NCBI RefSeq assembly: GCF_947503415.1
Contig: NZ_CANNDS010000001.1
Location: forward strand, 372,001 to 436,000
Direction: 5' to 3'
Origin: an uncultured Tateyamaria sp.
GTDB lineage: Bacteria > Pseudomonadota > Alphaproteobacteria > Rhodobacterales > Rhodobacteraceae
DNA: 64,000 bases
Under the pieces are notes generated by a model that searched no databases, was not told the origin of the DNA, and was given only the letters and a program-made list of their open reading frames with translations. How positions within the stretch are numbered: the first letter of the stretch is position 1; every line of letters starts with the position of its first letter. This document shows positions 25,347 to 47,596 of the stretch, in pieces. A program made the position numbers and the translations under genes.

Positions 25347-25360
25347 GCAACGATTTCGGA

Positions 25361-29632: not shown

Positions 29633-29794
29633 CGTGAATTGGCTGGCAGGGTTGATCCCAGGCACTCGCCAGACATCGCAGCCGTGTCACCATGTCCAGC
29701 CAGCCGACCGCATCGGACGCCCGCAGCACCGGTACTCTTGGGGAGGATAATCCTGTTGCCAAACGCAGGCCACTCGGGAATCCTGTTGGTCAAT
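29614..29794 (+). repeat. Direct repeats around CCTGTTGGTCAAT before the TRAP operon
   Basis: CCTGTTGGTCAAT occurs at 29615-29627, inside the end of the AraC gene, and at 29782-29794, with a partial copy CCTGTTGCCAAA at 29752-29763. Near the partial copy, AGGATAATCCT is an 11-base palindrome. Candidate regulator sites for the TRAP operon starting at 29812. Confidence 0.35.
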
Positions 29795-29811
29795 GTCTCT
29801 GGGAGGATTCA

Positions 29812-30804: not shown

Positions 30805-30827
30805 TAGACATGCCCTTACAGTCTGAG

Positions 30828-30851
30828 ACAGACGGCCTGCGGGTCGTCTGT
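30828..30851 (+). terminator. Terminator-like attenuator between dctP and dctQ
   Basis: Seven-base arms ACAGACG and CGTCTGT around a 10-base loop, followed by TCTTTTG. A leaky rho-independent terminator here would make more binding protein than membrane subunits, as in other binding-protein operons. Confidence 0.55.
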
Positions 30852-30862
30852 TCTTTTGCGCC

Positions 30863-32631: not shown

Positions 32632-32635
32632 TCCA

Positions 32636-33683: not shown

Positions 33684-34337
33684 TCAAAGCTGACGGATGT
33701 GGGTTTCGACCAACTCTGGCAAGTCTTCGAAATTACCAAAGGCCACATCATGGTGCATCGTGTCCACGGATTGCTTGCGGTATCCTTCGGTGAACAGAAA
33801 GAACGGGATCGAAGCGCGGCGAGCCGTTTCTGCATCAACTTCACTGTCGCCCACATAGATCGGCGGCCCGTCCCCAAGCGCCTCAAAGGCAGCCAGCAAA
33901 GCCGACGGATCCGGCTTTCGGCCAAGAGGATTGTCGCCGCCCCATACCGAAGCAAAAAAGCCATCCAACTCAAGATGTTTCAATACCGCGGCACAGGGCC
34001 GGTACAGCTTGTTGGTGCAGATCCCAAGGCGGTGGGTGCGCGCAAGCGTTTCCAGCGCATCGCGCACGCCGGGATATAGAACTGTTAGTGTCACCGCCTC
34101 GTCGTATCGCGCAATAAACGCGTCCAGCATCACTTCTTGCGCACTGTCCGGGATGTCACGCGCAGCGCGCACCTTGGAGACAAGAACGTGTATGCCTTCA
34201 CCGATGAAACTACGGGTGTCGTTGAGCGAAATCGGTTCCACGCCCATATCCTGCAACACCGCATTGGCCACGCCCTGAATATCGGGCGCGCTGTCAATGA
34301 GTGTGCCGTCCAGATCAAAGACAATTCTCGCCGTCAT
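33684..34337 (-). CDS. gph: HAD-IA phosphatase, phosphoglycolate-phosphatase-like
   Basis: 217 residues of the HAD subfamily IA. Motif I is FDLDGTLID with D8 and D10, motif II lies at ICTNK, motif III is GRKPDP and motif IV GDSEVDAETA. The cap domain of about 60 residues after motif I is helical, typical of Gph. These enzymes release phosphate from small phosphoesters such as phosphoglycolate or sugar phosphates. It is the last gene of the DeoR-phn operon, its start overlapping the upstream HAD gene as ATGA. In this context I infer that it dephosphorylates an imported compound rather than doing photorespiratory salvage only. Confidence 0.88.
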   Translation of the reverse strand: MTARIVFDLDGTLIDSAPDIQGVANAVLQDMGVEPISLNDTRSFIGEGIHVLVSKVRAARDIPDSAQEVMLDAFIARYDEAVTLTVLYPGVRDALETLARTHRLGICTNKLYRPCAAVLKHLELDGFFASVWGGDNPLGRKPDPSALLAAFEALGDGPPIYVGDSEVDAETARRASIPFFLFTEGYRKQSVDTMHHDVAFGNFEDLPELVETHIRQL

Positions 34338-35272
34338 GGGCGGCTTACAACGAAGCTTGGCGTGATCCCAGCCTGCGCAATCGCCGCTTTCACATCCTGA
34401 CCGGCAAAAAAGCCGTAGCCAGAGATCAACGCCGATGCGACACCGGCAGTCTGCGCGCCCAGAATGTCGGTGTGCAAGCTATCCCCCACCATGAGCACCC
34501 GCGACTTGTCGACCGCTCCCAGCCGTTTGAAGGCCAGATCAAAGATGTTGGCGAACGGCTTTCCAAAGAATGTGGGCGCAACATTGGTCCGATCGGCAAG
34601 GCGGTGTGCGAAGTGGCCGGGCTCCGTCGAGAAGCCTGTTTCGCGGGGGGCGACGATATCCGGGTTTCCGACGAGAACGGGACGTGGGTTGTCCATCAGC
34701 GCGGCCTCCAACAGGGTCTGCCGCGCGTCGGTCCAAGCCGCCGATCCGATCATTAGAAAACCGTCGACGGTGGCATAGGGTGCCGGATCTTCCTCCAGAT
34801 AGGTCAGGTTCAGCCCTTCCAGATCACGCAGGCCGGTGCTGCGCGTCGCCATCAGGCCCCAGTGCATTCCGCGATGGCCGTTCAACCCTGCCAGCAACGT
34901 TGCGCGGCTGGTGACGACGTCCTCCGGCGCAAAGTCGTACCCAAGCCTTGCGTATTTCTCCATCAGCGCCGCATGGGGGAACCCCGCCGCGTTCGAGACA
35001 ACCAGAACGCGTTTGCCTGCCGCCTTCAATGCCTTGACCCGTTCGGGCGTGCCCGCAATGGCCGTCTCTCCGATATTGAGAACGCCAAATGCGTCCAGAA
35101 GGAACGCGTCGAATTCATCGGCAAGGTCTTCAAGCGTTTCAACGCTGCGATATGAACCGTCTGTCCGTACGGCGTCAGGCAAGCGATGCCGGACCGCTTC
35201 GTAGGCGAGAAACGCTTCTTCTGCTGAGATTGCGCTCAAATAATCGCTCCACGCACCTTTGCCGACACCCAT
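34334..35272 (-). CDS. HAD class IIA hydrolase, TIGR01459-type
   Basis: 312 residues, or 301 if a TTG at 35239 is used. The latter start forms a TTGA overlap with the upstream permease stop and is plausible; I give the ATG start. Class IIA motifs: LLDAFGVLNIGETAIAG (nucleophile D, but the second aspartate of DxD is a phenylalanine, usual for this subgroup), VVSNAAG, then FGKPFANIFDLAFKRLG and MVGDSLHTDILGA. NagD-type cap between them. Members are phosphatases of sugar phosphates or glycerol phosphate. Its place inside a phn-like importer operon suggests that its substrate is the imported phosphorylated molecule. Cytoplasmic. Confidence 0.85.
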   Translation of the reverse strand: MGVGKGAWSDYLSAISAEEAFLAYEAVRHRLPDAVRTDGSYRSVETLEDLADEFDAFLLDAFGVLNIGETAIAGTPERVKALKAAGKRVLVVSNAAGFPHAALMEKYARLGYDFAPEDVVTSRATLLAGLNGHRGMHWGLMATRSTGLRDLEGLNLTYLEEDPAPYATVDGFLMIGSAAWTDARQTLLEAALMDNPRPVLVGNPDIVAPRETGFSTEPGHFAHRLADRTNVAPTFFGKPFANIFDLAFKRLGAVDKSRVLMVGDSLHTDILGAQTAGVASALISGYGFFAGQDVKAAIAQAGITPSFVVSRP

Positions 35273-36051
35273 TCACTGATGACAACGGCAAACAGGATCA
35301 CGACAAGGATCAGACTGACCTGCGGCCACGCCAGCACATTGAGCGACGCCGAAAGCTGCAGCCCAATCCCGCCCGCGCCGACAAGCCCCAGCACGGTGGA
35401 TTCGCGAATGTTGATGTCCCACCGGAAGACGGCGATGCCCGCGAAAGCGGGAAGGATTTGCGGTACGATACCATACGCCATGACCTGCCAACGGCTGGCG
35501 CCTGTGGCTGTGATGGCTTCGACCTGGGTGTGGTCGATCTCCTCGATCGCCTCGTACAGCAGCTTGGCGCAAAATCCGATGGACCGGATGGCGATGGCGA
35601 CAACACCTGCAAAGACACCAGGACCGATGATGGCAATCAAAAGAAGTGCCCAGATCAGTGAATTGATCGACCGGGTGGACACGATGATCAACAAGGCAAT
35701 GGGCCTGACGAAAAGGGCAGACGGCGTGGTGTTGCGGGCGGCAAGGAATGCAACCGGCACCGCAAGGCACAGCGAGATCATTGTCCCGAGCGTCGCGATG
35801 TTCAGCGTGTCCCAGATCGGGCGGCCCAATTGGGTGATGTACTCCCATTTGGGCGGCGTTGCGCGCGTCCAGATGTCGTTTGCGATGCGCGGGGCATCCC
35901 AGACAAAGAACCACGTTGTGGATTCTGAAATGATTTGCCAGCAGTAGACAAACACCGCCACACCCAACAGCCACCCGACCCAGCGGATCAGGCTTTCACC
36001 ACTGGTCCGACGCCGCCATATCTGCGCACCTTCACGCTCCAGAACCGGCAT
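35236..36051 (-). CDS. phnE: Phosphonate-type ABC transporter permease (second PhnE)
   Basis: 271 residues with six hydrophobic segments and the binding-protein-dependent coupling loop around HTQVEAITATGASRWQVMAYGIVPQILP. Second of two PhnE copies in the operon: it differs from the other in much of its sequence but has the same signature [17 protein letters not shown]. Two separate permeases suggest a heterodimeric channel. A one-base overlap (TAATG) joins it to the upstream copy. The N-terminal tail is long and polar. Confidence 0.92.
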   Translation of the reverse strand: MPVLEREGAQIWRRRTSGESLIRWVGWLLGVAVFVYCWQIISESTTWFFVWDAPRIANDIWTRATPPKWEYITQLGRPIWDTLNIATLGTMISLCLAVPVAFLAARNTTPSALFVRPIALLIIVSTRSINSLIWALLLIAIIGPGVFAGVVAIAIRSIGFCAKLLYEAIEEIDHTQVEAITATGASRWQVMAYGIVPQILPAFAGIAVFRWDINIRESTVLGLVGAGGIGLQLSASLNVLAWPQVSLILVVILFAVVISEWVSAKVRGAII

Positions 36052-36866
36052 TACTGAACCCTCGCGCGGATGACGCCGGACAAGTATTCAAGCGCCATGA
36101 CAATCCCGATGATAAGCAGAAGGATGGCCGCCGCAGTGTCGTATTCATACCGATCAAAGGCGGTGTTCAGCGTCGCCCCGATGCCACCGGCACCGACAAG
36201 ACCAAGGATCGCGCTTTCGCGAAAATTGATGTCGATCCGGTACATCGACAGTCCCACAAGCCGCGGCATGACCTGCGGCTGCACACCGTAGTTGATCCAC
36301 TGCGTCCAACGTGCGCCGCTGGCCTTGATCGCTTCGGCCTGCACCTTGTCCATGGCTTCGATGTCTTCGGCCAGCAGTTTCGACAGAAAGCCGATCGTGG
36401 CAAAGGACAGCGTCAGGAAACCGGCCAGCGGACCAAAGCCAAAGATCGCAACAAGCAGGATCGCGACAATGATTTCCTGCAACGCACGGCTGATGGCCAC
36501 GATGCCCCGACAAATGACATAGACCGGTAGCGGCGCTATGTTGCGGGCGGCGCCCAAACCGATGGGGATTGAAATCAGGATGCCCACAACCGACGCCGCC
36601 ACGGTCATGACGATGCTTTCGACAAGGCCGCTCCAGATGTCCGACCAGCGCGACAGGAAATCCGGGTTGGTAAAGGCAAGGACAAAAGCCCAGCCCCGAT
36701 CCAGCCCGTCATAGACGCGGCCCCAATCGACCTCGATGGTCATGAAAGCGGCAATGAGGTACGCGACGAACCCCACAATCAGGGTCCAGCGCAGTGCTGT
36801 ATTCTTGATAAAGGCCGGCTTCCGCCAACCGCGCCCCAGCATATCGTCCAACTCGCGATGGCTCAT
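36051..36866 (-). CDS. phnE: Phosphonate-type ABC transporter permease (first PhnE)
   Basis: 271 residues with a long N-terminal lead ([12 protein letters not shown]), six hydrophobic segments, and the coupling loop around [45 protein letters not shown] near the C-terminus is the PhnE signature. It pairs with the second PhnE copy and the PhnC ATPase. Its ATG overlaps the phnC stop by four bases, so these genes are translationally coupled. Confidence 0.92.
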
Positions 36867-37660
36867 TCCGCGGCCTCTATGCCGGTCTCATCGTCCTCGA
36901 CCTTTTCGATGGTCGCTTCCCAGTCTTCCTCGCCGTAGATTTCAGTCAATTTGTCTGGGGTCAAACCAGTGGGCAGACCGTCATAGACGATCTCGCCGAA
37001 CCGCAAACCGACGACGCGTGGAACGAACATCTGTGCCAGCGCCACATCGTGGATATTGATGATCGCGGCCAGCCCCCGTTCCTGACACAGCTCGGTGATC
37101 AATCGCATGATCTGTCGGCTGGTCTTGGGGTCAAGCGACGCCGTGGGTTCGTCCACGAGCATAAGCTTTGGGTTTTGGATCAGTGCGCGGCAGATACCGA
37201 CCCGCTGGCGCTGACCGCCCGAAAGTTCATCGGCGCGTTTGTCAGCCATGTGCAACAGACCAACCCGGTCCAGTAGGCGGAACGCTTCATCAACGTCAGA
37301 TTGCGGGTAGCGCCGCAGAAAGCTGCGCCAGAAACCAACATAGCCAAGCCGCCCGGACAGAACGTTCTCCATCACTGTCAGGCGTTCGATCAATGCGTAT
37401 TCCTGAAAGATCATCCCCATTTCGCGGCGCGCCTTGCGCAACGCGCCAGAGCTGAGTTTGACGAGATCCACATCGTCTAGCATCACCGCGCCGCTGGTGG
37501 GTTCGACCAGCCGGTTGATGCAGCGGATCATGGTCGACTTGCCCGCGCCCGACGGCCCGATCAACGCCAGAACCTGCCCTTTCGGTACGTCCAAGTCGAT
37601 TGACTTCAGCGCTTGATCGCCAGTCTTGTATGTCTTTGTCAGTTTTTGAAGGCGCAGCAT
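36863..37660 (-). CDS. phnC: Phosphonate-type ABC transporter ATPase
   Basis: 265 residues, one ABC domain: Walker [11 protein letters not shown]-loop FQEYALI, signature LSGGQRQR, Walker [13 protein letters not shown] and the H-loop in NIHDV. Length and order match PhnC. The C-terminal 30 residues are acidic ([14 protein letters not shown]), which is longer than usual and has no known role. It hydrolyses ATP to import the ligand captured by the PhnD-like protein. In the same operon as deoR, phnD and the two phnE copies. Confidence 0.93.
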
Positions 37661-37684
37661 AAAATTTCCCTAGCACGGGGTATG

Positions 37685-37707
37685 GGCGGGCCCTGATCAG
37701 GCCCGCC
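37685..37707 (-). terminator. Stem-loop between phnD and phnC
   Basis: Arms GGCGGGCC and GGCCCGCC (8 bases, G+C only) around a 7-base loop, 14 bases after the phnD stop. No U-run, so more likely an mRNA stabiliser that favours the binding protein than a full terminator. Confidence 0.5.
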
Positions 37708-37721
37708 GGATCAGCGAAGAC

Positions 37722-38696
37722 CTATTCGCAGGCGTAGGACACGCCATTCGCCGCGTCGATCTTGCGGATGACTTCCCAGAACTCCTGATAGGTCATCTCA
37801 AGGAACTGGCCCTCGTTCGACTTCGAGAACTCGGCCTCGAGCGATGTGCCTTCCCATTCGAAGCTGAAAAAGGCGTCACGGATGCTGTCCTGCAATTCAG
37901 GTTTCAGGTTGTGAACCGTGCCAAAACCCGTCGTCGGGAACGTCTGGGACTTGTAGATGACTTTGACGTCATCCTCCTTGATCACATCACGCAAGATCAT
38001 CCGCGACTTGACCGAGTTCGCAATAGAGGCGGCCATGTAGTCCTGATTGGCGACACCAAGGATCGAATTATCATGCTTGCCCGAGAACACCGGCTCAAAG
38101 TCGCGTTCGGGCAGCATATCGAAATCGCCCTTCAGGATGGCAGATGGTGCCTTGAAGCCCGAATTCGACGTGGGTGAGGTAAAGGCAAGCTGCTTGCCCT
38201 TGATATCTTCCACGCTTTCGATGCCCGAGCCGGGATATGTGATGATCTCCATCTCATAGCCGAAATTACCATCCTTCGACGCCATGATCGTAAAGGGCCG
38301 GAAGCCAGCGCAGTTGACCGCCAAAGGGTTCGAGCCCGTATTGAAGCCCGCGATATGCAAGCGACCCGACCGCATCGCCTCGATCTGGGCGGCGTTGTTC
38401 TGCACTGGGAAGAACACGACGTCCTTGCCGGTTTCAGCCTCCAGATGCTCGAGGAAATCCGACCATGCGGTTTTGTAGACGGCAGGGTCTTCGACCGGAG
38501 TATAGGCGAAGATCAATGTGTCGGGGTCAATCTGGTCGGCGGCATCGGTGGGGATGTCCGCGATCAGGTCGCCATCCGCATCGCAGAAGCGTGCGTCCAG
38601 ATCTCCGCGCGGGCAATCCTGGGCCGAGGCCGAGGTGCCTAGCGCCATCAACGCTAGGGCCGATGCACCTATCAGCAGTTTTATGTCCAGTTTCAT
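37722..38696 (-). CDS. phnD: PhnD-like phosphonate/phosphate-ester binding protein
   Basis: 324 residues with a signal peptide (cleavage near ASA-Q, residue 25). Matches the PhnD/PtxB-type family 12 solute-binding fold: FFPVQNNAAQIEAMRSGRLHIAGFNTG, then SPTSNSGFKAPSAIL (phosphate/phosphonate-binding loop with small hydroxyl residues) and a later GKHDNSILGVANQDYMAA. The mature start has C28 and C38 flanking a charged loop followed by DADGDLIAD (residues 39-47), which looks like a calcium-binding loop and is absent from E. coli PhnD as I recall it. GGGAGGA precedes the ATG at 38696. Ligand uncertain: phosphonate, phosphite or phosphate ester. Confidence 0.9.
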   Translation of the reverse strand: MKLDIKLLIGASALALMALGTSASAQDCPRGDLDARFCDADGDLIADIPTDAADQIDPDTLIFAYTPVEDPAVYKTAWSDFLEHLEAETGKDVVFFPVQNNAAQIEAMRSGRLHIAGFNTGSNPLAVNCAGFRPFTIMASKDGNFGYEMEIITYPGSGIESVEDIKGKQLAFTSPTSNSGFKAPSAILKGDFDMLPERDFEPVFSGKHDNSILGVANQDYMAASIANSVKSRMILRDVIKEDDVKVIYKSQTFPTTGFGTVHNLKPELQDSIRDAFFSFEWEGTSLEAEFSKSNEGQFLEMTYQEFWEVIRKIDAANGVSYACE

Positions 38697-38737
38697 GTGT
38701 GTCCTCCCTGACATGCGGCGTTTTTTGCCGCGATTGA

Positions 38738-39535
38738 TTATGTGTCGTCCGTTGAAATGATGTCTACGTTCGCCGCGACCAGCGCACCAAGCAGCGCGTC
38801 TTTTGGTCGGCTATCAACAACAATAGATTGCAGGCCCGTCAAGTCTCCTACGTGGGCCAACCCCTTGCGCCCGAACTTTTGCGAGTCGATCAGAAGGTGC
38901 CGATATTCGGCCCTCTGCAGCATCATCCGCTTTACTGCAGCGAACCCACGCACCGATTCCGACGGCCCCTCGGTCGAAAAACCGGACGATCCGATCACGC
39001 AACGGTCGACGTTGAACCGCGACAGGAATTCCAGTGTTTCGGTCCCGATCACGGCTGACTCGGCGGCGAGATATTCACCCGGACAAAGCAGCACTTCGGG
39101 GGCACCGTGGCCAAGTGTCATTGCCACGGGGATCGAATTGGTGATGACGGTGCAGGGCGTACCCAGATAGGCCAGCGCGCGCGCCATCTCGATGGTGGTA
39201 GACCCGGAATCGATCATCACCGTCTCGCCCTCGCGAACCAGCTTGGCGGCACGCCGACCGATGCGTTCGCGTTCGTCGATCCGTGAATTTGCCCGCTCGT
39301 CCAGATTTGGATAATGCCCCTGCGACGGGGCTGATGCGCCGCCGTGGGCGCGGGCGATCAGCCCTTCGCCAGACAGCGCATCGAAATCCCGACGCACGGT
39401 TTCGGTCGAGACATTGAAGCGTTGCGCCAGCTCACTGATCCGCACATGCGGACGCAATTTGAGCTCCAGCAAGATCTGACGGCGCCGCTCCTTTTTCTTC
39501 AAGCGCGCCCTGTCCTTGATCTCCGCTTTCGACAT
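38738..39535 (-). CDS. DeoR/GlpR-family transcriptional regulator
   Basis: 265 residues. The N-terminal winged helix has HVRISELAQRFNVSTETVRRDFDAL, and the DeoR C-terminal sensor has VMIDSGSTTIEMA and the GSSGFSTEGPSESV region, which in the family binds a phosphorylated sugar or glycerol phosphate. Start: ATG 39535 (MSKAEIKDRARLKKK), with GGGGCGG nearby; a TTG at 39592 in frame is less likely. First gene of the minus-strand operon with phnD, phnC, phnE, phnE, HAD and gph, so it controls its own operon, and it diverges from the Na/Pi cotransporter gene. An inverted repeat for it lies in that gap. Confidence 0.9.
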   Translation of the reverse strand: MSKAEIKDRARLKKKERRRQILLELKLRPHVRISELAQRFNVSTETVRRDFDALSGEGLIARAHGGASAPSQGHYPNLDERANSRIDERERIGRRAAKLVREGETVMIDSGSTTIEMARALAYLGTPCTVITNSIPVAMTLGHGAPEVLLCPGEYLAAESAVIGTETLEFLSRFNVDRCVIGSSGFSTEGPSESVRGFAAVKRMMLQRAEYRHLLIDSQKFGRKGLAHVGDLTGLQSIVVDSRPKDALLGALVAANVDIISTDDT

Positions 39536-39627
39536 CTGCCGCCCCGTTACGTCCCCTGAGGGCAGAGTGTGGCCTTTCCGACGGATTTTCAATTATTTTG
39601 TTGCATAAGCCACGTTTCAGTGTGAGA

Positions 39628-39649
39628 TTTTCAAAATTACCTTTGAAAA
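39628..39649. promoter_or_regulatory. Candidate DeoR operator in the divergent promoter region
   Basis: Perfect 8-base arms TTTTCAAA and TTTGAAAA with a 6-base spacer, 22 bases in all, plus a third half-site ATTTTCAA at 39585-39592. It lies 93 bases upstream of the regulator start and 68 bases from the Na/Pi gene start, so it can serve both directions. Confidence 0.6.
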
Positions 39650-39716
39650 CAACAAGGAAACCAGATTTGACCCGGGACGCATCATACCAGCGGACCAAGA
39701 CGACGCGACTGCACCC

Positions 39717-41378
39717 ATGATCTTGCTGGCCGGGCACCTCGCCGCGGCGGTGGCATTGCTACTGTGGTCCGTGCGCCTGATCCGAACCGGGGTCGAACGG
39801 GCTTTCATGCCAGAACTCAAGCGCCGGCTGCGCGCTTTGTCGGGGCGCACTGTGTCGGCTGCGAGCGGCGGGATACTGGCCGCGATGGTGATGCAAAGCG
39901 CCACGGCGGTCGCGCTAATCGGCGCTGGCTTTGCAGTCTCGGGCATGCTGGCAGTCCCAGCGGCTTTGGCGCTTGTCCTTGGCGCAGATCTGGGTTCGGC
40001 CCTGATGGCGCAGGTCCTCTTCTTACCGGTTCAGGCCGCGATCCCGTTTGTTCTGCTGGCCGGAATTCTGACGTTCTTCAAGGCGCGAAGCCGAAAGACA
40101 AAACAGGTCGGGCGCATCACAATCGGCTTTGCCCTCGTGCTGATTGCGCTGGACATGATCAGACAGGCCACAGCGCCGATGGGCGAAAATGACATTGTCC
40201 AGTCCATTGCCACATACTTCCAAAGCGATCTGGTCAGCGCCTTCGTCATCGCGGCACTTTTGACATGGGTCATGCACTCCAGCCTTGCCGCCGTGCTGAC
40301 CTTTGCCACCTTCGCGGCGACAGGTCTTGTCAGCGCACCCGTCGCCGCAGCATTGGTGATCGGCGCAAACCTGGGCGGCGCGTTCATTCCGTTCGTCTTG
40401 CTGATAGGAGACGACAGGCCCGCGCGCCTTGTCGCCGTTGGCAACCTTTTGGCCCGCGGTGTCGTGACACTGGTATTTTTCGCCGCGCTGCACCTTGGGG
40501 TATTTCAGCCGCTCTTTGCCATTCCAAACGCAGGTCAGCAGGCCATCGTGCTGCATATCGCCCTGAATACAGCCGTCGTTGTCCTGGCGCTCCCTTTCAT
40601 CGGCCTTCTGGTGCGGTTGGCTGAGGCACTCGTCCCTGAACGTGCCGAAAACAGCGCAGCTACCGTCACGGCGTTGGACAAGACAGCGCTTGAACACACG
40701 CCGCTTGCCCTTGCCTGCGCCCAGCGCGAATTGCTCACGATGGCGGAAACGGTGCAGACCACCTTGGTTCCTATCATGAGCCTGTTTCGCGATTGGAATG
40801 CGGACACCGCGCGGATGATCGACCTGTGCGAAGACAAAATCGACCACATGCATTTCGAAACCAAGATCTACATCTCTCAATTGCGGGAGCGCACGCTGAC
40901 CGAGGCTGAAGAAAAGAAAACGCTTGAGATCGTCGCGATGGCAAACAGCCTCGAAGAGGCCGGAGATCGCATTGCCGTCAACCTCGCCACGCTGGCGAAA
41001 AAGTTGCGTGACGACGCCCTCGCCTTTTCCGAACAAGGCACAAACGATCTTGAGCATTTTCACGATCAAGTCGTCACCAACGGTCAATTGGCGTTACAGG
41101 TGCTGACGACCGGCGATGCCGAAGCCGCCCGTCAACTGGTGGCGGAAAAGGACCGCATCCGGGTCGAGGAGCAGCGGCTGCAGGAATGCCACCTCAAACG
41201 TCTGCAACAAGGTGGCACGGCCAGCATCGAGACGACGAACATCCATCAAGAAGTCCTGTGCCTGCTGAAACAGATCAACGCAGCCCTCAGCTATGTCGCC
41301 TATCCGATTGCCGAAGAGACCGGGGATTTGCTGGGCAGTCGTCTGGCGAAACCGAAACGCTCCATGGGTCTGGCATGA
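39717..41378 (+). CDS. Na/Pi cotransporter family protein with PhoU-like domain
   Basis: 553 residues. The first 330 contain the two inverted Na/Pi-cotransporter repeats, each with a hydrophobic segment and the QSATA / HSSLAA-type signatures (QSATAVALIGAGF and HSSLAAVLTFATFAATGL). Residues about 350-530 are a soluble helical, PhoU-like domain (long charged helices such as LEIVAMANSLEEAGDRIAVN), common in bacterial NptA-type proteins. It exports or imports phosphate with sodium. In this island it may keep free phosphate in balance after phosphatases release it. The ATG overlaps nothing upstream; the stop overlaps the Nudix start (ATGA). Confidence 0.9.
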   Translation: MILLAGHLAAAVALLLWSVRLIRTGVERAFMPELKRRLRALSGRTVSAASGGILAAMVMQSATAVALIGAGFAVSGMLAVPAALALVLGADLGSALMAQVLFLPVQAAIPFVLLAGILTFFKARSRKTKQVGRITIGFALVLIALDMIRQATAPMGENDIVQSIATYFQSDLVSAFVIAALLTWVMHSSLAAVLTFATFAATGLVSAPVAAALVIGANLGGAFIPFVLLIGDDRPARLVAVGNLLARGVVTLVFFAALHLGVFQPLFAIPNAGQQAIVLHIALNTAVVVLALPFIGLLVRLAEALVPERAENSAATVTALDKTALEHTPLALACAQRELLTMAETVQTTLVPIMSLFRDWNADTARMIDLCEDKIDHMHFETKIYISQLRERTLTEAEEKKTLEIVAMANSLEEAGDRIAVNLATLAKKLRDDALAFSEQGTNDLEHFHDQVVTNGQLALQVLTTGDAEAARQLVAEKDRIRVEEQRLQECHLKRLQQGGTASIETTNIHQEVLCLLKQINAALSYVAYPIAEETGDLLGSRLAKPKRSMGLA

Positions 41379-41842
41379 GCACGAAACGCGACATGGCCGT
41401 ACAGATCGCCGCCCTGCCCGTCCGTTGGGACAAAAAGGGCAAGCTGCGGGTCCTTATGGTTACCTCGCGCGACCGCGGCCGGTGGGTCATGCCCAAGGGT
41501 TGGACGATGGATGGAAAGAAGCCGTGGCAGGCGGCCAAGATCGAAGCGCTGGAAGAAGCGGGCGCCGTTGGCTTCGTGTCGGACCAGGCAATTGGCATCT
41601 ATCACTATCACAAAAGACTGGCGAAGAATCGTTCGGTCCTTTGCCGGGTGACGGTCTATCCGATGATCGTGGACAGGTTGAAACGGCGTTGGAAAGAACG
41701 CAAGGAACGCAAAAGGCACTGGTTTTCTTTGGGAAAAGCCGCAAAGCTGGTGGACGAACCTGAATTGACGCATTTGCTTCGGGACTTGGCAAAGAACCCG
41801 AAAAAACTGATTGAACTCGAAGAATTGCGCCCGGCGGCCTAA
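41375..41842 (+). CDS. Nudix-fold protein (DIPP-like) with atypical box
   Basis: 155 residues. The Nudix region GWTMDGKKPWQAAKIEALEEAGAVG keeps the final EE and G but differs from the classical box (GX5EX7REUXEEXGU): the first glutamate position is lysine and the box arginine is isoleucine. This resembles the diphosphoinositol-polyphosphate and ADP-ribose-type branch. It would cleave diphosphate bonds of a nucleotide-sugar, dinucleotide or inositol pyrophosphate. The C-terminal basic part (RLKRRWKERKERKR) is unusually charged. Coupled by ATGA to the Na/Pi gene and followed after 57 bases by the second ABC transporter. Confidence 0.8.
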   Translation: MSTKRDMAVQIAALPVRWDKKGKLRVLMVTSRDRGRWVMPKGWTMDGKKPWQAAKIEALEEAGAVGFVSDQAIGIYHYHKRLAKNRSVLCRVTVYPMIVDRLKRRWKERKERKRHWFSLGKAAKLVDEPELTHLLRDLAKNPKKLIELEELRPAA

Positions 41843-41857
41843 CGTCGAGCGGATAGA

Positions 41858-41874
41858 ATCCGGAAATACCGGAT
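41858..41874 (+). repeat. Inverted repeat before the second binding-protein gene
   Basis: Six-base arms ATCCGG and CCGGAT around AAATA in the 57-base gap after the Nudix gene. Probably an intercistronic hairpin; it could also be an operator for an internal promoter. Confidence 0.35.
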
Positions 41875-41899
41875 CGTTTGAACCCTAGGGAGGACCAAA

Positions 41900-42925
41900 A
41901 TGAACAAACTGAAACTCACGGGCGCGAGCGCGTTGGTCGCACTTGCCGCGTCGGTCAGCATGGCGCAGGCGGACAAGCTGACGTTCTATTGCTCGGCACA
42001 GGAAGACTGGTGCCAGTTGATGGCCCGCAGCTTTGAGGATGCGACCGGCATTGATGTCGACATGACGCGTAAATCCTCGGGCGAAACATTTGCCCAAATC
42101 CGCGCCGAGGCGTCCAACCCCAAGGGTGACGTCTGGTGGGGCGGCACCGGTGATCCGCATTTGCAGGCCGCCGAAGAAGGGCTGACGATGGAATACATGT
42201 CGCCCATGCGCGACCAGCTGCACGATTGGGCGATTTCCCAAGCCGAGAGCGCTGGCAACAAGACCATCGGCATTTATTCGGGTGCGTTGGGCTACGGCTA
42301 CAACACCGATCTGCTGGCCGCGAACAATCTGCCAGAACCCGCGTGTTGGAAAGATCTGCTGAAGCCTGAATACAAGGGTCACGTGCAGATGGCGAACCCG
42401 AACTCTTCGGGCACGGCCTACACAACGCTTGCCTCGATGGTGCAAATCTTCGGCGAAGACGAAGGCTTTGAGTTCATGAAAGGCCTTCATGCAAACGTGA
42501 ACCAGTATACCAAATCGGGCTCGGCTCCGATCAAGGCTGCGGGCCGCGGTGAAAACACCATCGGCATCGTCTTCATGCATGATGCTGTGAAACAGGCGGT
42601 GTCTGGGTTCCCGGTCAAGGTCGTCGCACCATGCGAGGGCACCGGATACGAGATCGGGTCGATGTCGATCATCGACGGCGCGCGCAACGAGGACGAGGCC
42701 AAGCAGTTCTACGACTGGGCGCTGAGCACCGACGCGCAAAACCTTGCCCTTGAGGTCAACGCCTTTCAGGTGCCGTCGAACACAGGCGCACAGACATCCG
42801 ACAGCGCCCCTGACATGTCGACGATCAAGCTGATCGATTATGACTTCAAAAAGTATGGCTCGTCTGATGAACGCAAGCGCCTGCTTCAGAAGTGGGACGA
42901 AGAGGTGTCAGTTCTGCCTCAGTAA
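41900..42925 (+). CDS. ABC transporter binding protein, ferric/hexose-phosphate (AfuA-like) type
   Basis: 341 residues with a signal peptide (cleavage near AQA-D, residue 24). Follows the FbpA/AfuA family: TFYCSAQEDWCQLMARSFE, MANPNSSGTAYT, and PCEGTGYEIGSMSI. The NSSGTAYT and PCEGTGYEIGSM patches resemble those of AfuA, which in pathogens binds hexose 6-phosphates rather than iron, and the classical iron-binding tyrosine pair is not obvious. With the phosphatases around it I favour a sugar phosphate or other phosphorylated ligand. GGGAGGA precedes the ATG. First gene of a three-gene transporter followed by a phosphatase-like gene. Confidence 0.85.
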   Translation: MNKLKLTGASALVALAASVSMAQADKLTFYCSAQEDWCQLMARSFEDATGIDVDMTRKSSGETFAQIRAEASNPKGDVWWGGTGDPHLQAAEEGLTMEYMSPMRDQLHDWAISQAESAGNKTIGIYSGALGYGYNTDLLAANNLPEPACWKDLLKPEYKGHVQMANPNSSGTAYTTLASMVQIFGEDEGFEFMKGLHANVNQYTKSGSAPIKAAGRGENTIGIVFMHDAVKQAVSGFPVKVVAPCEGTGYEIGSMSIIDGARNEDEAKQFYDWALSTDAQNLALEVNAFQVPSNTGAQTSDSAPDMSTIKLIDYDFKKYGSSDERKRLLQKWDEEVSVLPQ

Positions 42926-42928
42926 TCC

Positions 42929-45145
42929 ATGCGTTCCGTCTCAAGTCTACGGACCGCCCGCCCGGTTTTGATCTTCTGGATCATTGCCGGGTGGGTCGGG
43001 TATCTTCTTTTGCCATGGTATATGGTCGAGGATGGCATTTGGTCATTCTTGTGGCTGGTCGATGGCTATCCTTTTGATGAGGATTTCGCGCCAGCTGCGT
43101 TTCTGATCGGTCAGGGCGAAAAACTGTGGCTCACGCCACTTCTGATCCCACTTGCCATGCCGCTTCTGGTGCTTGGGCGTGCCAAATCCGACCCGCTTTA
43201 CGCCCGCATCCTGATCCTGTCCGGAGCCCTCGGGTTTGGTTGGCTGATTGCCCAGGGCTTCGGCATCGGCATCCGTGGCTTCAACTATGACTGGCTGGAA
43301 GCCCTGTTCGGAGACCTGCGGATCCGCCAGTTCGGTATGGGCTACGGCGCGATGATCTGCGCCTCGTCTTTCCTGTTTATTCTGACACAGGGCATCGCCG
43401 CACGTGGTGCAATCAACGGTGATGTCTTTGTCGTCAGCGCCATCGGCGGCGTTATCACGATTGTCACGGCCTTTGTGTTCTACCCGATTGCCAACATGCT
43501 GTTTTCGGCCTTCGTCACCGAAGACGGAGCATATTCGCTGGCCGTTTTCGCCGCGAAGTTCTTTGATGACCGGCTGTGGGGGCTTGGGTGCCTTTGGGGC
43601 GCGCGCTGTGGCGTCGCCTGGAATTCGCTGTTCCTTGCCATCGCAGTTGGTTTCATCACAACCATACTCGGGCTCTGCTTCGCTCTTGTCGTCACCCGCT
43701 CGGGCTTTCGCTACAAACGCGCCATTCGTGCATTGACGGTCCTGCCGATCATCACGCCACCCTTCGTGATCGGGTTGGCGCTGATCCTGCTCTTTGGCCT
43801 GTCGGGTTCAATCACAGTTTTCTTTGCCGATCTCTTCGGCACGCAACCCACCCGCTGGCTCTATGGCTGGCCCGGTGTGCTGATCGCGCAGACGCTCGCC
43901 TTCACCCCGATTGCCTTCCTTGTGCTAATCGGTGTGGTCGAAGGCGTCTCTCCCTCGATGGAGGAGGCCGCGCAGACGCTGCGCGCCAACCGCTGGCAGA
44001 CGTTCCGCACAGTCTCGCTGCCGTTGATGCGGCCCGGCCTCGCCAATGCGTTTCTCTTGGGCTTCATCGAGTCGATGGCCGACTTCGGCAATCCGCTGGT
44101 GCTTGGCGGCAACTTCGACGTGCTTTCGACCGAGATATTCTTTGCCATTGTGGGCGCACAATACGATCAAGGCCGCGCCGCTGTTCTGGCCATGGTGCTG
44201 TTGTTCTTCACTCTCTCGGCCTTCTATGCCCAGCGCGCTTGGCTGGGCAAAAGAAGCTATACCACTGTCACCGGCAAGGGTGACGCAGGCGTTCATCCGT
44301 TGATGCCAACCGCATTTGCCGTTCCCGTCCTCGCGATTGCCCTGACATGGGCGCTGTTCACTGCGGTGGTTTATGCCATGATCATCTACGGCAGCGTGGT
44401 CGAATTGTGGGGCGTCAACAACACGCTCACCTTCAAGCACTACGTCACCGCCTTCAGCGTCCGGTTCGAGGCCGAAGGCATCCGCTGGACTGGGGCCGCG
44501 TGGGACAGTTTCTGGACCACGATCACCATCGCCGCCATCGCCGCCCCCCTTACGGCGGCGGTGGGGCTGGTCACCGCCTATCTGCTCACGCGCCAGTCCT
44601 TTGCGGGCAAGAATGCCTTCGAGTTCGGTACGATGCTGTCCTTTGCCATTCCCGGCACGGTGATCGGTGTCAGCTACATCCTTGCGTTCAACGTGCCGCC
44701 TATCGAAATCACCGGCACGGGCGTCATTCTGGTTGTCAGCTTTATCTTCCGAAATATGCCCGTCGGCGTGCGCGCAGGTATCGCGTCAATGAGCCAATTG
44801 GACAAGTCACTGGACGAGTCGTCCCTCACCCTTGGCGCGAATTCATGGCAAACATTCCGCCGGATCATATTGCCGCTGTTGCGCCCTGCAATCCTTGCGG
44901 CACTTGTCTACAGTTTCGTCCGGGCCATGACGGCGATCTCGGCGGTGATCTTCCTTGTGTCGGCCAAGTACGACATGGCAACCAGCTACATCATCGGGCG
45001 GGTCGAGAATAACGACTATGGCCTTGCCATCGCTTATTCGACCACGCTGATCTTCGTGATGCTGTCGGTTGTGGCCGTCATGCAGTTGATCGTTGGGCGC
45101 ACCCGGATCGGGCGCCGCATGACGCAGTCGCGCACCAATGTGTAA
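42929..45145 (+). CDS. ABC transporter permease, fused double type (FbpB/AfuB-like)
   Basis: 738 residues, a single chain with both permease halves. The coupling loops are SMEEAAQTLRANRWQTFRTVSLPLMRP and LDESSLTLGANSWQTFRRIILPLLRP, one per half. About fourteen hydrophobic segments, with extra ones at the N-terminus (first near 11-31, then several before residue 200). This is the FbpB/AfuB arrangement. Three bases separate it from the binding-protein gene and 12 from the ATPase gene, so all are in one operon. It forms the path through the inner membrane. Confidence 0.93.
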   Translation: MRSVSSLRTARPVLIFWIIAGWVGYLLLPWYMVEDGIWSFLWLVDGYPFDEDFAPAAFLIGQGEKLWLTPLLIPLAMPLLVLGRAKSDPLYARILILSGALGFGWLIAQGFGIGIRGFNYDWLEALFGDLRIRQFGMGYGAMICASSFLFILTQGIAARGAINGDVFVVSAIGGVITIVTAFVFYPIANMLFSAFVTEDGAYSLAVFAAKFFDDRLWGLGCLWGARCGVAWNSLFLAIAVGFITTILGLCFALVVTRSGFRYKRAIRALTVLPIITPPFVIGLALILLFGLSGSITVFFADLFGTQPTRWLYGWPGVLIAQTLAFTPIAFLVLIGVVEGVSPSMEEAAQTLRANRWQTFRTVSLPLMRPGLANAFLLGFIESMADFGNPLVLGGNFDVLSTEIFFAIVGAQYDQGRAAVLAMVLLFFTLSAFYAQRAWLGKRSYTTVTGKGDAGVHPLMPTAFAVPVLAIALTWALFTAVVYAMIIYGSVVELWGVNNTLTFKHYVTAFSVRFEAEGIRWTGAAWDSFWTTITIAAIAAPLTAAVGLVTAYLLTRQSFAGKNAFEFGTMLSFAIPGTVIGVSYILAFNVPPIEITGTGVILVVSFIFRNMPVGVRAGIASMSQLDKSLDESSLTLGANSWQTFRRIILPLLRPAILAALVYSFVRAMTAISAVIFLVSAKYDMATSYIIGRVENNDYGLAIAYSTTLIFVMLSVVAVMQLIVGRTRIGRRMTQSRTNV

Positions 45146-45157
45146 GGAACCCCGACC

Positions 45158-46225
45158 ATGAGCATTCAATCCAAGGCCGCTCCCGTCCGGTTCGAGGGCG
45201 TGTCGAAAGTCTTTGGCAAAGACGTGGTCGCCGTCGACAGCATCGACCTGCATGTCGAGGCCGGCAAACTCGTCACGCTGCTGGGGCCATCGGGCTGCGG
45301 CAAGACAACGACACTGCGCATGATCGCTGGACTGGAGATGGCCAGTTCGGGCCGCATTCTGATCGGCGATCGCGATGTAACCCGCCTGCCCGCCACTGAC
45401 CGCGACGTATCCATGGTGTTTCAATCCTACGCACTGTTCCCCCACATGAGCGTGCTGGAAAATGTGATGTACGGTCTGACCTTTTCGGGCTTTTCGAAGG
45501 ACGAGTCACGAACCCGCGCGCTTCACGGTCTGGACTTGGTCGGCCTGAAGGGCTTTGACGACCGCCTGCCATCCGAGCTGTCGGGTGGACAGCAACAGCG
45601 TGTCGCCGTGGCCCGTGCACTGGTTCTTGAGCCGCAAGTGCTCTTGTTCGACGAACCCCTGTCGAACCTCGATGCAAAATTGCGCCGGCAGGTGCGCGAA
45701 GACATTCGGGCGATCCAGCAGGACCTCGGCCTCACCGTCGTCTACGTCACCCACGATCAGGAAGAAGCACTGGCGGTTTCGGACGAAATTGTTGTGATGC
45801 GCAACGCGTCCATTGCCCAGATCGGCACACCACGGCAACTGTACGACGCCCCCAATGACCGCTTTGTTGCCGATTTCATCGGCGAGGCGAACCTGCTGAC
45901 ATGCCAGATCGTATCGGTCGACGGCGGCACAGCCACGATCGAGATCGACGGCTATCAACACAGCTTGCCAGCGCGCGGGCTTGGGCTTGGTCCGGCCACC
46001 CTTGCCGTGCGCCCCTCGCGGCTTCTCATCGGGCATGACACCGGTATCGCCGCCACGGTTGCAAAGGCCACTTATGTTGGCGTGCACATGGAATATACGC
46101 TGACGGGCGAATTCGGTCAGGTCTTTGCCGTGCTTGATGACGTGGACGACCCGCTGGAACCGGGAACAGAGGTCAGGATGGCCTTTGCAGCCAAAGGGCC
46201 GGTGCTGTTGCCCGAAGAAACCTAG
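45158..46225 (+). CDS. ABC transporter ATPase (FbpC/AfuC-like)
   Basis: 355 residues: an ABC domain (Walker A GPSGCGKTT, signature LSGGQQQR, Walker B LLFDEPLSNLD, H-loop YVTHDQEEALAVSD) followed by a C-terminal OB-like regulatory domain typical of Fbp/Pot/Ugp-type ATPases (PSRLLIGHDTGIAATV region). It energises the fused permease. The stop TAG overlaps the GTG start of the next gene by one base. The family is used for iron, spermidine, sugars and phosphate esters; ligand preference is set by the binding protein. Confidence 0.93.
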   Translation: MSIQSKAAPVRFEGVSKVFGKDVVAVDSIDLHVEAGKLVTLLGPSGCGKTTTLRMIAGLEMASSGRILIGDRDVTRLPATDRDVSMVFQSYALFPHMSVLENVMYGLTFSGFSKDESRTRALHGLDLVGLKGFDDRLPSELSGGQQQRVAVARALVLEPQVLLFDEPLSNLDAKLRRQVREDIRAIQQDLGLTVVYVTHDQEEALAVSDEIVVMRNASIAQIGTPRQLYDAPNDRFVADFIGEANLLTCQIVSVDGGTATIEIDGYQHSLPARGLGLGPATLAVRPSRLLIGHDTGIAATVAKATYVGVHMEYTLTGEFGQVFAVLDDVDDPLEPGTEVRMAFAAKGPVLLPEET

Positions 46226-46791
46226 TGCCAAAGCTTCTGGTCGTCACGCATCCCGAAGTGGTGGTCGAGCCAGATCGCCCGATCCCCGATTGGCGGCTGA
46301 GCGAAACCGGACGGAACCGCGCAACTGCCTTTGCCACCAGCGCGCATATGGCGCACGTCTCTGATATCTGGTGCAGCACTGAACGAAAGGCGCACGACAC
46401 AGCCGCGATCCTTGCCGTACCATGCACATTACCTGTCAATGTCGACCCGGCCCTTGGCGAAAACGACCGCAGCGCCACCGGTTTCCTGCCGCCCGCAGAG
46501 TTCGAAGCTGCGGCAGATGAGTTCTTTGCCAACCCGTCGAACAGCTTCCGGGGATGGGAACCGGCCGTGGACGCACAAGCGCGCATTTGCCAAGCTATAC
46601 AAAGAATTGCGTCGCAACATTCTGGTGGTGATCTTGCCATCGTCACCCACGGCGCGGTTGGAACGCTGCTTTGGTGTCACTTGATGCACCGGCCCATCGA
46701 CCGGACACATGATCAGCCTTCACAGGGGCATTTCTGGCAGGCAGACCTGTCGACGCTACGTCCGCAAACCGGTTGGCTGCCTATCGCCTGA
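46225..46791 (+). CDS. Histidine-phosphatase-like protein lacking the RHG arginine
   Basis: 188 residues starting with GTG at 46225. The fold matches the phosphoglycerate-mutase-like histidine phosphatase superfamily: strand and VTHPEVVV near the start, WRLSETGRNRATAFA, ERKAHDTAA, GENDRSATG and IVTHGAVGTLLW near the end. The phosphohistidine (H) of RHG is present as THP, so the flanking arginine that helps bind phosphate is a threonine; this THPEV form may be a recurrent alphaproteobacterial subgroup. Last gene after the AfuABC-like transporter, sharing a stop/start with the ATPase gene. Suggests cleavage of phosphate from an imported compound, if active. Confidence 0.75.
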   Translation: MPKLLVVTHPEVVVEPDRPIPDWRLSETGRNRATAFATSAHMAHVSDIWCSTERKAHDTAAILAVPCTLPVNVDPALGENDRSATGFLPPAEFEAAADEFFANPSNSFRGWEPAVDAQARICQAIQRIASQHSGGDLAIVTHGAVGTLLWCHLMHRPIDRTHDQPSQGHFWQADLSTLRPQTGWLPIA

Positions 46792-46804
46792 GCCGCGCCA
46801 AACG

Positions 46805-47596
46805 TCAGTCGTTCCACGCCTCATCAGCGATGGCCACCAGCGTTCCGAATACGTCCTGACTGCCTGCAATGACCCGCCCACCTGTCCGGATCATCTGGTC
46901 CGCGTCCTGTTCTTCGACCATGCCGCCGGCTTCCTCGATCATCAACTGACCCGCCAGACAATCCCACGCGTTCATATGCTCTTCGATGTAGCCCAGCAGC
47001 CGTCCGGCCGCGACATAGGCAAGCGACAACGCACCGCTGGCGTTCCGGTGATACAGCGCGCCCCGCTCGACCAGCGCCGCAAGGACAGGTATGACATGCG
47101 CCGCCTCAACCCGGTTTGAATAGCCGACAGACACTGTCCCGCTGTCCAGCGCGACACCGGACGCCACCCGCATCTCGGCGCCGTTCAACGTTGCCCCACC
47201 GCCACGTCGCGCCACATAGGTCTCATCGACATTCGGCTCATGGATCACGCCGATCTGGGTCTGCCCCTCCGAAACCCCCGCCAACACGATTGTCCACGCG
47301 GGGATGCCGTTGACGAAGTTCGTGGTGCCGTCGATGGGGTCGATCACCCAGTCAAATCCGCTCTGCCCCACTTTGGGCGCATGCTCTTCCCCGACGATAC
47401 CATCGTCGGGCCAAGCCTCTTCGATCCGTTCGCGGATATAGATTTCAACGTTTCTATCCGCCTCGCTGACCCAGTCCTGCGCGCCCTTTTGATCGATCAC
47501 AAGCGCACTTCTGTCTGCAAAATACCGAGCGGCTTTTGTACCTGCATCCCTGCACACGGCGATAGCAAACTCTTGGCGGGTTGAAAGGCTATCCAT
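46805..47596 (-). CDS. Inositol-monophosphatase-family phosphatase
   Basis: 263 residues. Contains the metal-binding motif WVIDPIDGTTNFVNGIP and the second signature MNAWDCLAGQLMIEEAGG, and the glutamates at EEHA, as in IMPase/SuhB/CysQ enzymes (Mg2+-dependent). It removes phosphate from inositol monophosphate, histidinol phosphate, PAP or related compounds; length is normal. The ATG at 47596 (MDSLSTRQEF) begins the family region; the upstream frame is open but unlike it. It converges on the histidine-phosphatase-like gene (14 bases apart), forming the end of the island. Confidence 0.92.
   Translation of the reverse strand: MDSLSTRQEFAIAVCRDAGTKAARYFADRSALVIDQKGAQDWVSEADRNVEIYIRERIEEAWPDDGIVGEEHAPKVGQSGFDWVIDPIDGTTNFVNGIPAWTIVLAGVSEGQTQIGVIHEPNVDETYVARRGGGATLNGAEMRVASGVALDSGTVSVGYSNRVEAAHVIPVLAALVERGALYHRNASGALSLAYVAAGRLLGYIEEHMNAWDCLAGQLMIEEAGGMVEEQDADQMIRTGGRVIAGSQDVFGTLVAIADEAWND

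What the first reader, a model, noticed from the sequence alone, without database searches (positions are those of the whole stretch)
33684..47596. Bidirectional organophosphate import-and-dephosphorylate island
Two ABC importers (PhnDCEE-like and AfuABC-like), a Na/Pi cotransporter, a DeoR-type regulator, a Nudix protein and four phosphatase-fold proteins (HAD-IA, HAD-IIA, histidine-phosphatase-like, inositol-monophosphatase-like) are packed in 14 kb with mostly overlapping starts and stops. DeoR regulators typically sense phosphorylated sugars or glycerol phosphate, not phosphonates, and there is no C-P lyase or phosphonatase gene. Together they look like a system for taking up intact phosphate esters, splitting them inside the cell and balancing the phosphate. 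The AfuA-like protein resembles hexose-phosphate binders. This particular combination is not one I know described as a unit.
Basis: partly seen in the sequence, partly recalled or inferred. Interest (0 to 1): 0.78.

Follow-up and report, generated by a model that had tools for sequence, protein, structure and literature searches.

The report
Conserved sugar- and glycerol-phosphate import island
A marine bacterium keeps, side by side, two pumps that take in glycerol-phosphate and sugar-phosphate whole, several phosphatase-like enzymes, a regulator and a probable phosphate exporter, a set also found in many of its relatives, which may let them live on such compounds and return phosphate to seawater.

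Summary
The left-hand importer is not phosphonate-type in function: its binding protein is an orthologue of GpxB (glycerol-1-/3-phosphate; PNAS 2025), 495 bits to the crystal sequence, all nine ligand residues identical. The right-hand one keeps the five specificity residues of AfuA (hexose-6-phosphate). No C-P lyase gene (PhnJ) was found in the genome. The set is kept in relatives: 30 of 80 named gpxB loci carry afuA head-to-head; among 150 genera, gpxB and afuA lie within 10 kb in 6 of 14 genomes with both (0.07 expected). The Na/Pi protein aligns over its length with E. coli YjbB (31%), a reported Pi exporter; it and HAD-IIA recur beside gpx and beside a true ugp importer. The divergent control region holds a conserved element (core in 39 of 46 distinct regions). 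Two 'phosphatases' are doubtful: HAD-IIA lacks the second motif-I Asp in all 46 rows read, and the histidine-phosphatase has THP for RHG. Best reading: a carbon-type system that imports phosphorylated C3/C6 compounds and vents surplus Pi. Importer ligands are well supported; cleavage, Pi venting and joint control are inferred. The parts are known; my searches found no description of the unit.

The parts
33684..34337 (-). HAD-IA phosphatase, phosphoglycolate-phosphatase-like, canonical FDLDGTLID and GDSEVD motifs
   Evidence: NCBIfam TIGR01449 164.8 bits, below its cut-off of 180; motifs; HAD-IA relatives at 36% or more near gpx in 21 of 80 loci
34334..35272 (-). HAD-IIA protein, motif I DAFGVLN (nucleophile Asp kept, second Asp replaced by Phe)
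   Evidence: TIGR01460 103 bits, cut-off 100.15; Phe or Tyr at that place in 46 of 46 rows, window and 45 homologues; near gpx in 68 of 80 loci
35236..36051 (-). ABC permease, PhnE type (Gpx)
   Evidence: TIGR01097 271.1 bits, above cut-off
36051..36866 (-). ABC permease, PhnE type (Gpx)
   Evidence: TIGR01097 267 bits, above cut-off
36863..37660 (-). ABC ATPase, PhnC type (Gpx)
   Evidence: TIGR02315 325.7 bits, above cut-off
37722..38714 (-). GpxB, glycerol-1-/3-phosphate binding protein
   Evidence: PDB 9lf9/9lfb 495 bits against 85 for the next, PtxB; nine of nine ligand residues identical
38738..39535 (-). DeoR/GlpR-family regulator
   Evidence: PF00455 and PF08220; start taken at the ATG of MSKAEIKDR; relatives at 40% or more near gpx in 42 of 80 loci
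39568..39613 (.). conserved element in the shared divergent region, candidate DeoR operator or promoter
   Evidence: core pattern in 39 of 46 distinct divergent regions, mean 0.16 and at most 2 in 200 shuffles
39717..41378 (+). Na/Pi protein with PhoU domain, YjbB type, candidate Pi exporter
   Evidence: PF02690 and PF01895; 31% identity over 537 residues to E. coli YjbB
41375..41842 (+). Nudix protein, substrate unknown
   Evidence: PF00293 27.2 bits, cut-off 21.1
41900..42925 (+). AfuA, hexose-phosphate binding protein
   Evidence: PDB 4r72 318 bits; S60 T172 H227 D228 E251 match AfuA S37 T150 H205 D206 E229
42929..45145 (+). AfuB, fused ABC permease
   Evidence: TIGR03262 265.6 bits, below its cut-off; order afuABC
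45158..46225 (+). AfuC, ABC ATPase
   Evidence: NF008513 349.8 bits, below its cut-off; order afuABC
46225..46791 (+). histidine-phosphatase-like protein with THP in place of RHG
   Evidence: PF00300 78.1 bits; motif
46805..47596 (-). inositol-monophosphatase-family phosphatase with canonical motifs
   Evidence: PF00459 171 bits; motifs; within 10 kb of afuA in 12 of 18 genomes with both

Best explanation
The island is one DeoR-controlled unit for living on small phosphorylated compounds. [quoted passage not shown] the AfuABC pump brings in hexose-6-phosphates. Inside, glycerol-3-phosphate and hexose-6-phosphates can enter central metabolism directly (recalled). Glycerol-1-phosphate, and whatever the Nudix and IMPase proteins act on, must first lose phosphate, most likely by the canonical HAD-IA and IMPase; HAD-IIA is a dedicated glycerol-phosphate partner of unknown chemistry. 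Used as carbon sources, these compounds bring in far more phosphate than a cell needs, and ABC pumps, unlike the antiporters GlpT and UhpT, carry no Pi out in exchange. The YjbB-type protein is the vent for the surplus. The DeoR protein senses an imported phosphorylated compound and acts at the divergent region. Shown: gene set, ligand-residue identity, conservation, YjbB homology, shared conserved element. Inferred: cleavage steps, Pi export, the signal, DeoR binding.
For: GpxB identity and residues, with G1P/G3P binding of relatives and induction by both reported in PMC12718374. AfuA residues, with ligands reported in PMC4546632, which also notes that AfuABC needs no Pi efflux whereas UhpT does. 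No PhnJ in the genome; a glycerol kinase is present. Head-to-head order in 30 of 80 named loci and other joinings in L043, L021 and L077/L153. In the genus 6 of 6 gpxB genomes have afuA against 2 of 14 without gpxB (P 7e-4). NptA within 10 kb of HAD_IIA in 17 of 36 and of GpxB in 10 of 32 genomes with both. HAD_IIA with NptA in a true ugp operon (L081), HAD_IIA alone in another (L091), both with a Ugp-like importer and a phosphoesterase gene in L082. YjbB alignment and reported Pi export by YjbB. Pi export during growth of marine alphaproteobacteria on 2-aminoethylphosphonate, with no exporter named in the passages seen. GpxB is absent from the printed P-stress table of MED193, which holds UgpB and PhnD (the table highlights Pho-regulon proteins, its full supplement was not seen).
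Against: Nothing was measured in this organism. In the 150-genus set 43 of 49 gpxB genomes have no afuA within 10 kb and 39 of 49 no NptA (some contigs are short); gpxB and afuA co-occur only weakly (14 genomes, 9.1 expected, P 0.03). In 2 of the 6 gpxB genomes of the genus (G155, G157) afuA lies on another contig. NptA is missing from otherwise full islands such as L115 and the named Ruegeria loci; G038, whose island lacks it, has a 36% homologue elsewhere. YjbB export is stated to have been shown on overexpression. HAD-IIA and the histidine-phosphatase-like protein lack catalytic residues usual for phosphatases. The 80 named loci were the best of 169 by likeness to this GpxB.
Confidence: 0.6

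Rival explanations
1. A phosphorus-scavenging island used under Pi limitation: the esters are imported as P sources and the Na/Pi protein imports Pi.
For: UgpB, and a putative sugar importer listed next to a predicted phosphodiesterase, are P-stress proteins in Phaeobacter MED193.
Against: No CTGTCA (recalled as half of the Pho box) in the window's divergent region nor in 49 of the 53 regions listed, duplicates included; GpxB is not in the printed P-stress table of MED193 but is induced by G1P and G3P; the Na/Pi protein resembles the exporter YjbB.
Confidence: 0.2
2. Two unrelated operons that lie side by side by descent only, without joint function.
For: Both modules occur apart in many genomes; weak family-wide co-occurrence.
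Against: 30 of 80 named loci keep the head-to-head order; several different arrangements join gpx and afu, in two AfuA clades; a shared conserved element; 6 of 14 within 10 kb against 0.07 expected.
Confidence: 0.15
3. The HAD-IIA protein is itself the general G1P/G3P phosphatase, using another acid in place of the missing Asp.
For: Next gene after the gpx permeases in 26 of 48 gene-called loci and present in 68 of 80 named loci; in a ugp operon between a GDPD-family gene and NptA (L081); nucleophile Asp kept; PDB relatives include glycerol-3-phosphate phosphatases.
Against: Second motif-I Asp is Phe or Tyr in 46 of 46 rows. Not universal: 12 of 80 named loci show no HAD_IIA hit, some cut by contig ends, and 14 of 49 gpxB genomes have no homologue at E 1e-30.
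Confidence: 0.35
4. A phosphonate importer, as automatic annotation (phnCDE) implies.
For: Permeases and ATPase pass the NCBIfam PhnE and PhnC cut-offs.
Against: The binding protein falls below the PhnD cut-off (144.6 against 261.1) and matches GpxB; no PhnJ in the genome (other phosphonate routes were not searched genome-wide).
Confidence: 0.03

Closest known systems
Gpx glycerol-1-/3-phosphate ABC transporter of Phaeobacter sp. MED193 (PMC12718374)
   Same: Orthologous binding protein with the same nine ligand residues; PhnC/PhnE-type partners; marine Rhodobacterales.
   Different: In that paper's main text 'phosphatase', 'afu', 'DeoR', 'cotransporter', 'symporter' and 'YjbB' have no occurrence. 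Its neighbourhood figure and supplement were not seen.
AfuABC hexose-phosphate ABC transporter (PMC4546632)
   Same: Binding protein keeps the five specificity residues; afuABC order.
   Different: Here with a DeoR gene, a phosphate exporter candidate and gpx.
UgpBAECQ, GlpT and UhpT organophosphate uptake
   Same: Uptake of glycerol-phosphate or hexose-phosphate intact; UhpT and GlpT are Pi antiporters.
   Different: Here ATP-driven import, with Pi return assigned to a separate YjbB-type protein (inferred).
YjbB of E. coli
   Same: Full-length homology.
   Different: In E. coli K-12 it lies between metH and pepE.
AepXVW 2-aminoethylphosphonate transporter (PMC8316502)
   Same: Organophosphorus use with Pi export.
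   Different: Different substrate; the window protein falls below the cut-off of the related NCBIfam phnS2 model (231.8 against 392.75).

Membership tests
GpxB | Nine ligand residues T111 G112 Y138 S168 N169 S170 H199 R223 T247 | tested here: met
   Identical at all nine
GpxB | Binds G1P and G3P at micromolar Kd | not testable with these tools
   Reported for other GpxB proteins in PMC12718374
AfuA hexose-phosphate binder | S37 T150 H205 D206 E229 | tested here: met
   S60 T172 H227 D228 E251
AfuA hexose-phosphate binder | Nanomolar binding of G6P, F6P, S7P | not testable with these tools
   Reported for A. pleuropneumoniae AfuA in PMC4546632
P5PA vitamin B6 phosphate binder | Leu105 in place of Gly and loss of D206 and E229 | tested here: not met
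   Window has Gly, Asp and Glu there
Phosphonate (PhnD, C-P lyase) system | PhnD model cut-off and PhnJ in the genome | tested here: not met
   144.6 against cut-off 261.1; PhnJ no match, positive control E. coli
YjbB-type Na/Pi protein | Na_Pi_cotrans plus PhoU domain and end-to-end alignment with YjbB | tested here: met
YjbB-type Na/Pi protein | Exports Pi | not testable with these tools
   Reported for YjbB
HAD phosphatase (for HAD-IIA) | DxD in motif I, second Asp as general acid/base (role recalled) | tested here: not met
   Phe or Tyr in 46 of 46 rows
HAD phosphatase (for HAD-IA) | DxD in motif I and GDxxxD | tested here: met
   FDLDGTLID, GDSEVD
Histidine phosphatase | RHG motif (recalled) | tested here: not met
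   THP in 4 of 4 rows, window included
Inositol monophosphatase family | GEEH, DPIDGT and WDxxA motifs (recalled) | tested here: met

The most novel reading that the evidence does not exclude
Marine alphaproteobacteria use a recurring, modular import-and-vent cassette in which ATP-driven importers of three unrelated families (Gpx, AfuABC, Ugp) are paired with a YjbB-type Pi exporter. The pair does in two proteins what GlpT and UhpT do in one, so the bacteria can live on phosphate esters as carbon and release Pi. The HAD-IIA clade that travels with the glycerol-phosphate importers, lacking the usual second Asp, would be a new kind of glycerol-phosphate enzyme or a sensor.
Probability: 0.4. Interest if true: 0.7.

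Novelty: new variant of a known kind. Interest (0 to 1): 0.52.

Why it matters
Marine bacteria have been seen to release Pi while growing on an organophosphorus compound, and in the passages and word searches of that paper I saw no exporter named. A YjbB-type gene set into organophosphate import islands makes that question testable with one deletion. The island also joins glycerol-phosphate uptake, of the archaeal and the bacterial mirror form, with hexose-phosphate uptake in one unit, corrects the usual phnCDE and iron-transport labels, and points to a HAD-IIA clade worth assaying.

Tried and rejected
Phosphonate uptake: rejected by binding-site residues and the absence of PhnJ. Iron uptake by the AfuABC-like system: rejected by the AfuA residues. 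Vitamin B6 phosphate uptake (P5PA): rejected at three positions. A first mechanical gene caller chose antisense frames in this GC-rich DNA and was replaced by a codon-based one, whose starts are approximate and which missed some HAD_IA, Nudix, DeoR and HisPh genes that tblastn finds; counts rest on tblastn and on the genome-search tables. Ten genes next to gpxB on its upstream side, picked, were of unrelated families. A search of the window for further copies of the control element gave one match, the site itself; the genome search also gave only this site, but its reversed control pattern gave one hit too, so that count carries no weight. Rfam and tRNA scans of the window were empty. A PDB search for the Na/Pi protein gave nothing. 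Structure prediction was not run, since it could not decide catalytic competence. In one search I copied positions by hand and left out: second GpxB copies of G092 (46%) and G136 (42%), weaker PhnD-like hits, AfuA-like hits under 50% identity, and IMPase hits under 40% identity, which include the second, paralogous copies.
Full report
WHAT IS THERE. The 14-kb stretch holds two head-to-head gene groups. To the left of a 181-base divergent region (39536-39716) run a DeoR regulator, a PhnD-type binding protein, a PhnC-type ATPase, two PhnE-type permeases, a HAD-IIA and a HAD-IA protein. To the right run a Na/Pi protein with a PhoU domain, a Nudix protein, an AfuA/AfuB/AfuC importer and a histidine-phosphatase-like protein, then, on the opposite strand, an inositol-monophosphatase-family gene. 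The genome has 4.87 Mb in 18 contigs and one GpxB gene. Four genomes that the genome search places in its genus agree in contig length and place with public records titled Tateyamaria; that the window is a Tateyamaria-like member of the Roseobacter group is an inference.

THE FIRST IMPORTER IS GPX. The binding protein scores 495 bits against PDB 9lf9/9lfb and 85 or less against PtxB, PhnD and others. [quoted passage not shown] that 9lf9 is this protein follows from the residues falling in place at its numbering and was not read in the paper. All nine are identical in the window protein (T126 G127 Y153 S183 N184 S185 H214 R238 T262) and in 47 of 50 relatives aligned; two of the three exceptions differ at the last residue and one is cut by its contig end. 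The window protein falls below the PhnD cut-off (144.6 against 261.1), and the genome has no PhnJ. It also has a true ugpB (536.7 bits against 411) and a glycerol kinase (663.7 against 590.35) elsewhere.

THE SECOND IMPORTER IS AFUABC. The binding protein is nearest to AfuA (318 bits) and less near to the vitamin-B6-phosphate binder P5PA (250 bits). The five residues that PMC4546632 tested in AfuA (passages) are conserved (S60 T172 H227 D228 E251), and three positions where P5PA departs are AfuA-like (passages of PMC8427247).

IT IS KEPT TOGETHER. A scan of one genome per species gave 169 places encoding a GpxB relative, of which the best 80 were returned. Within about 10 kb, at the thresholds in the script, 68 of 80 have HAD_IIA, 42 DeoR, 31 AfuA, 28 IMPase, 26 NptA, 25 Nudix, 21 HisPh and 21 HAD_IA; many loci are cut by contig ends. 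In 30 of 80 AfuA lies head-to-head beyond the gpxB start as in the window, in one (L153) otherwise; 25 of 80 have DeoR, HAD_IIA, AfuA and IMPase together, among them loci titled Ruegeria, Marivita, Silicimonas, Boseongicola and Tateyamaria. Roseobacter insulae (L134) has the head-to-head order without a HAD_IIA hit. One locus, L120, has all eight partners. These 80 were chosen by likeness to this GpxB. A less biased view comes from 150 genomes of the family, one per genus. GpxB at 49% identity or more is in 49, AfuA at 55% or more in 28, both in 14 (9.1 expected, P 0.03), within 10 kb in 6 (0.07 expected). NptA-HAD_IIA are within 10 kb in 17 of 36 genomes with both, NptA-GpxB in 10 of 32, HAD_IIA-GpxB in 29 of 35, AfuA-IMPase in 12 of 18. 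In the genus 6 of 20 genomes have gpxB and all six have afuA, in two of them on another contig; 2 of the other 14 have afuA (P 7e-4). Shared ancestry is not corrected for. The order is not frozen: in L043 DeoR and AfuABC follow each other divergent from gpx, in L021 another gene lies between DeoR and AfuA, in L077/L153 AfuABC follows HAD_IIA in tandem. L021 and L043 belong to a different AfuA clade from the window. A quick tree of 62 AfuA rows needs 8 changes of the label 'next to gpx', at least 4 forced by starred branches (its adjacent rows are over-sampled by design, and gains cannot be told from losses).

A SHARED CASSETTE WITH OTHER IMPORTERS. In gpx-less genomes HAD_IIA homologues sit elsewhere. 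In L081 the order is ugpB, two further genes of permease size, an ATPase, a GDPD-family gene, HAD_IIA, NptA; UgpB passes its cut-off (513.7 against 411) and matches 9lff, a UgpB-type structure, at 780 bits. In L091 a ugpB operon (555.6 bits) ends with HAD_IIA, without NptA. In L082, L083, L085, L086, L096 and L099 a DeoR-type gene (29-32%), an ATPase and genes of the sizes of a CUT1 importer lie divergent from HAD_IIA. Only in L082 did I scan them: the binding protein scores 146 bits to UgpB (below cut-off), and a calcineurin-type phosphoesterase gene precedes NptA. NptA was called at the end of L082, L083, L085, L086 and, in pieces, L099, not in L096. L113 has a similar set with IMPase and no HAD_IIA. 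So HAD_IIA and NptA travel with more than one importer family. For AfuABC loci without IMPase, two of six nearby downstream genes that I picked were HAD sugar-phosphatase-like, one SpdA-like and three neither.

THE PI VENT. The Na/Pi protein aligns over 537 residues with E. coli YjbB (31%, E 2e-75). Passages of PMC11389368 and PMC11850910 call YjbB a Pi exporter, the second with the caution that this was shown on overexpression. Passages of PMC8316502 report Pi export during growth on 2-aminoethylphosphonate; 'cotransporter', 'symporter', 'NptA' and 'YjbB' do not occur in its main text. PMC4546632 points out that AfuABC, unlike UhpT, needs no Pi efflux. Against the vent: no NptA within 10 kb of gpxB in 39 of 49 genomes, nor in many Ruegeria islands.

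PHOSPHATASES. HAD-IA and IMPase keep their catalytic motifs. HAD-IIA has DAFGVLN: the nucleophile Asp is kept but the second Asp of DxD is Phe or Tyr in 46 of 46 rows read (window and 45 homologues, Ugp-linked ones included); the GKP and GD motifs are kept except that one row (L076) lacks the G of GD and one is cut. PDB entry 2hx1, labelled a predicted sugar phosphatase, shares DAFGVL. The histidine-phosphatase-like protein has THP where RHG is usual (4 of 4 rows). That the second Asp and RHG matter for activity is recalled knowledge.

CONTROL. The divergent region holds a conserved element (39568-39613). Its core, a CAA half-site 3 to 9 bases before TTGTTG, occurs in 39 of 46 distinct regions, against a mean of 0.16 and at most 2 in 200 mononucleotide shuffles; the regions come from related genomes and are not independent. 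CTGTCA, recalled as half of the Pho box, is absent from the window region and from 49 of 53 regions listed. In MED193, GpxB is not in the printed table of P-stress proteins, which does hold UgpB, UgpC and PhnD (section 7 of PMC10132767 read). This favours control by a phosphorylated carbon compound over Pi starvation. DeoR binding is not shown.

NOVELTY. The two importers are published singly. Searches of the paper library returned no description of the unit, of NptA as partner of ABC organophosphate importers, or of the HAD-IIA partner; I saw listings with titles and abstract starts, and the sections and passages cited; supplements, figures and most subscription papers were not available. It is a new variant of known kinds of uptake system.

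Noticed in passing
window 29692-33523: A TRAP transporter (three genes) followed by an isocitrate-lyase/PEP-mutase-family gene, convergent with HAD-IA; the latter falls below the cut-offs for methylisocitrate lyase, PEP mutase and phosphonopyruvate hydrolase.
   Followed up: partly
L065, L067, L068, L070, L071, L072 (beside AfuA): In a second AfuA clade a gene of 243-260 aa and one of 816-854 aa lie divergent from afuA; in L065, the only one scanned, these are an OmpR-type response regulator and a hybrid sensor kinase, so another control mode for afuABC.
   Followed up: partly
80 named gpxB loci: At the thresholds used, loci have either DeoR nearby (42) or a HAD-IA gene directly upstream of gpxB (14), never both.
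   Followed up: partly
L105: A NptA-DeoR divergent pair (47% and 59% identity) with the conserved control element but no gpx importer in the stretch; a TonB-dependent receptor gene, below the B12-receptor cut-off, lies close by.
   Followed up: no
window 47979-48815: A 2OG-Fe(II) oxygenase-family gene next to the island; no homologue at half length in the 74 loci searched.
   Followed up: no
window 49286-52384: A 1032-residue open frame with no Pfam match at E 1e-8.
   Followed up: no
window 18508-27091: Alpha-mannosidase (GH38) next to an oligopeptide-type ABC importer.
   Followed up: no
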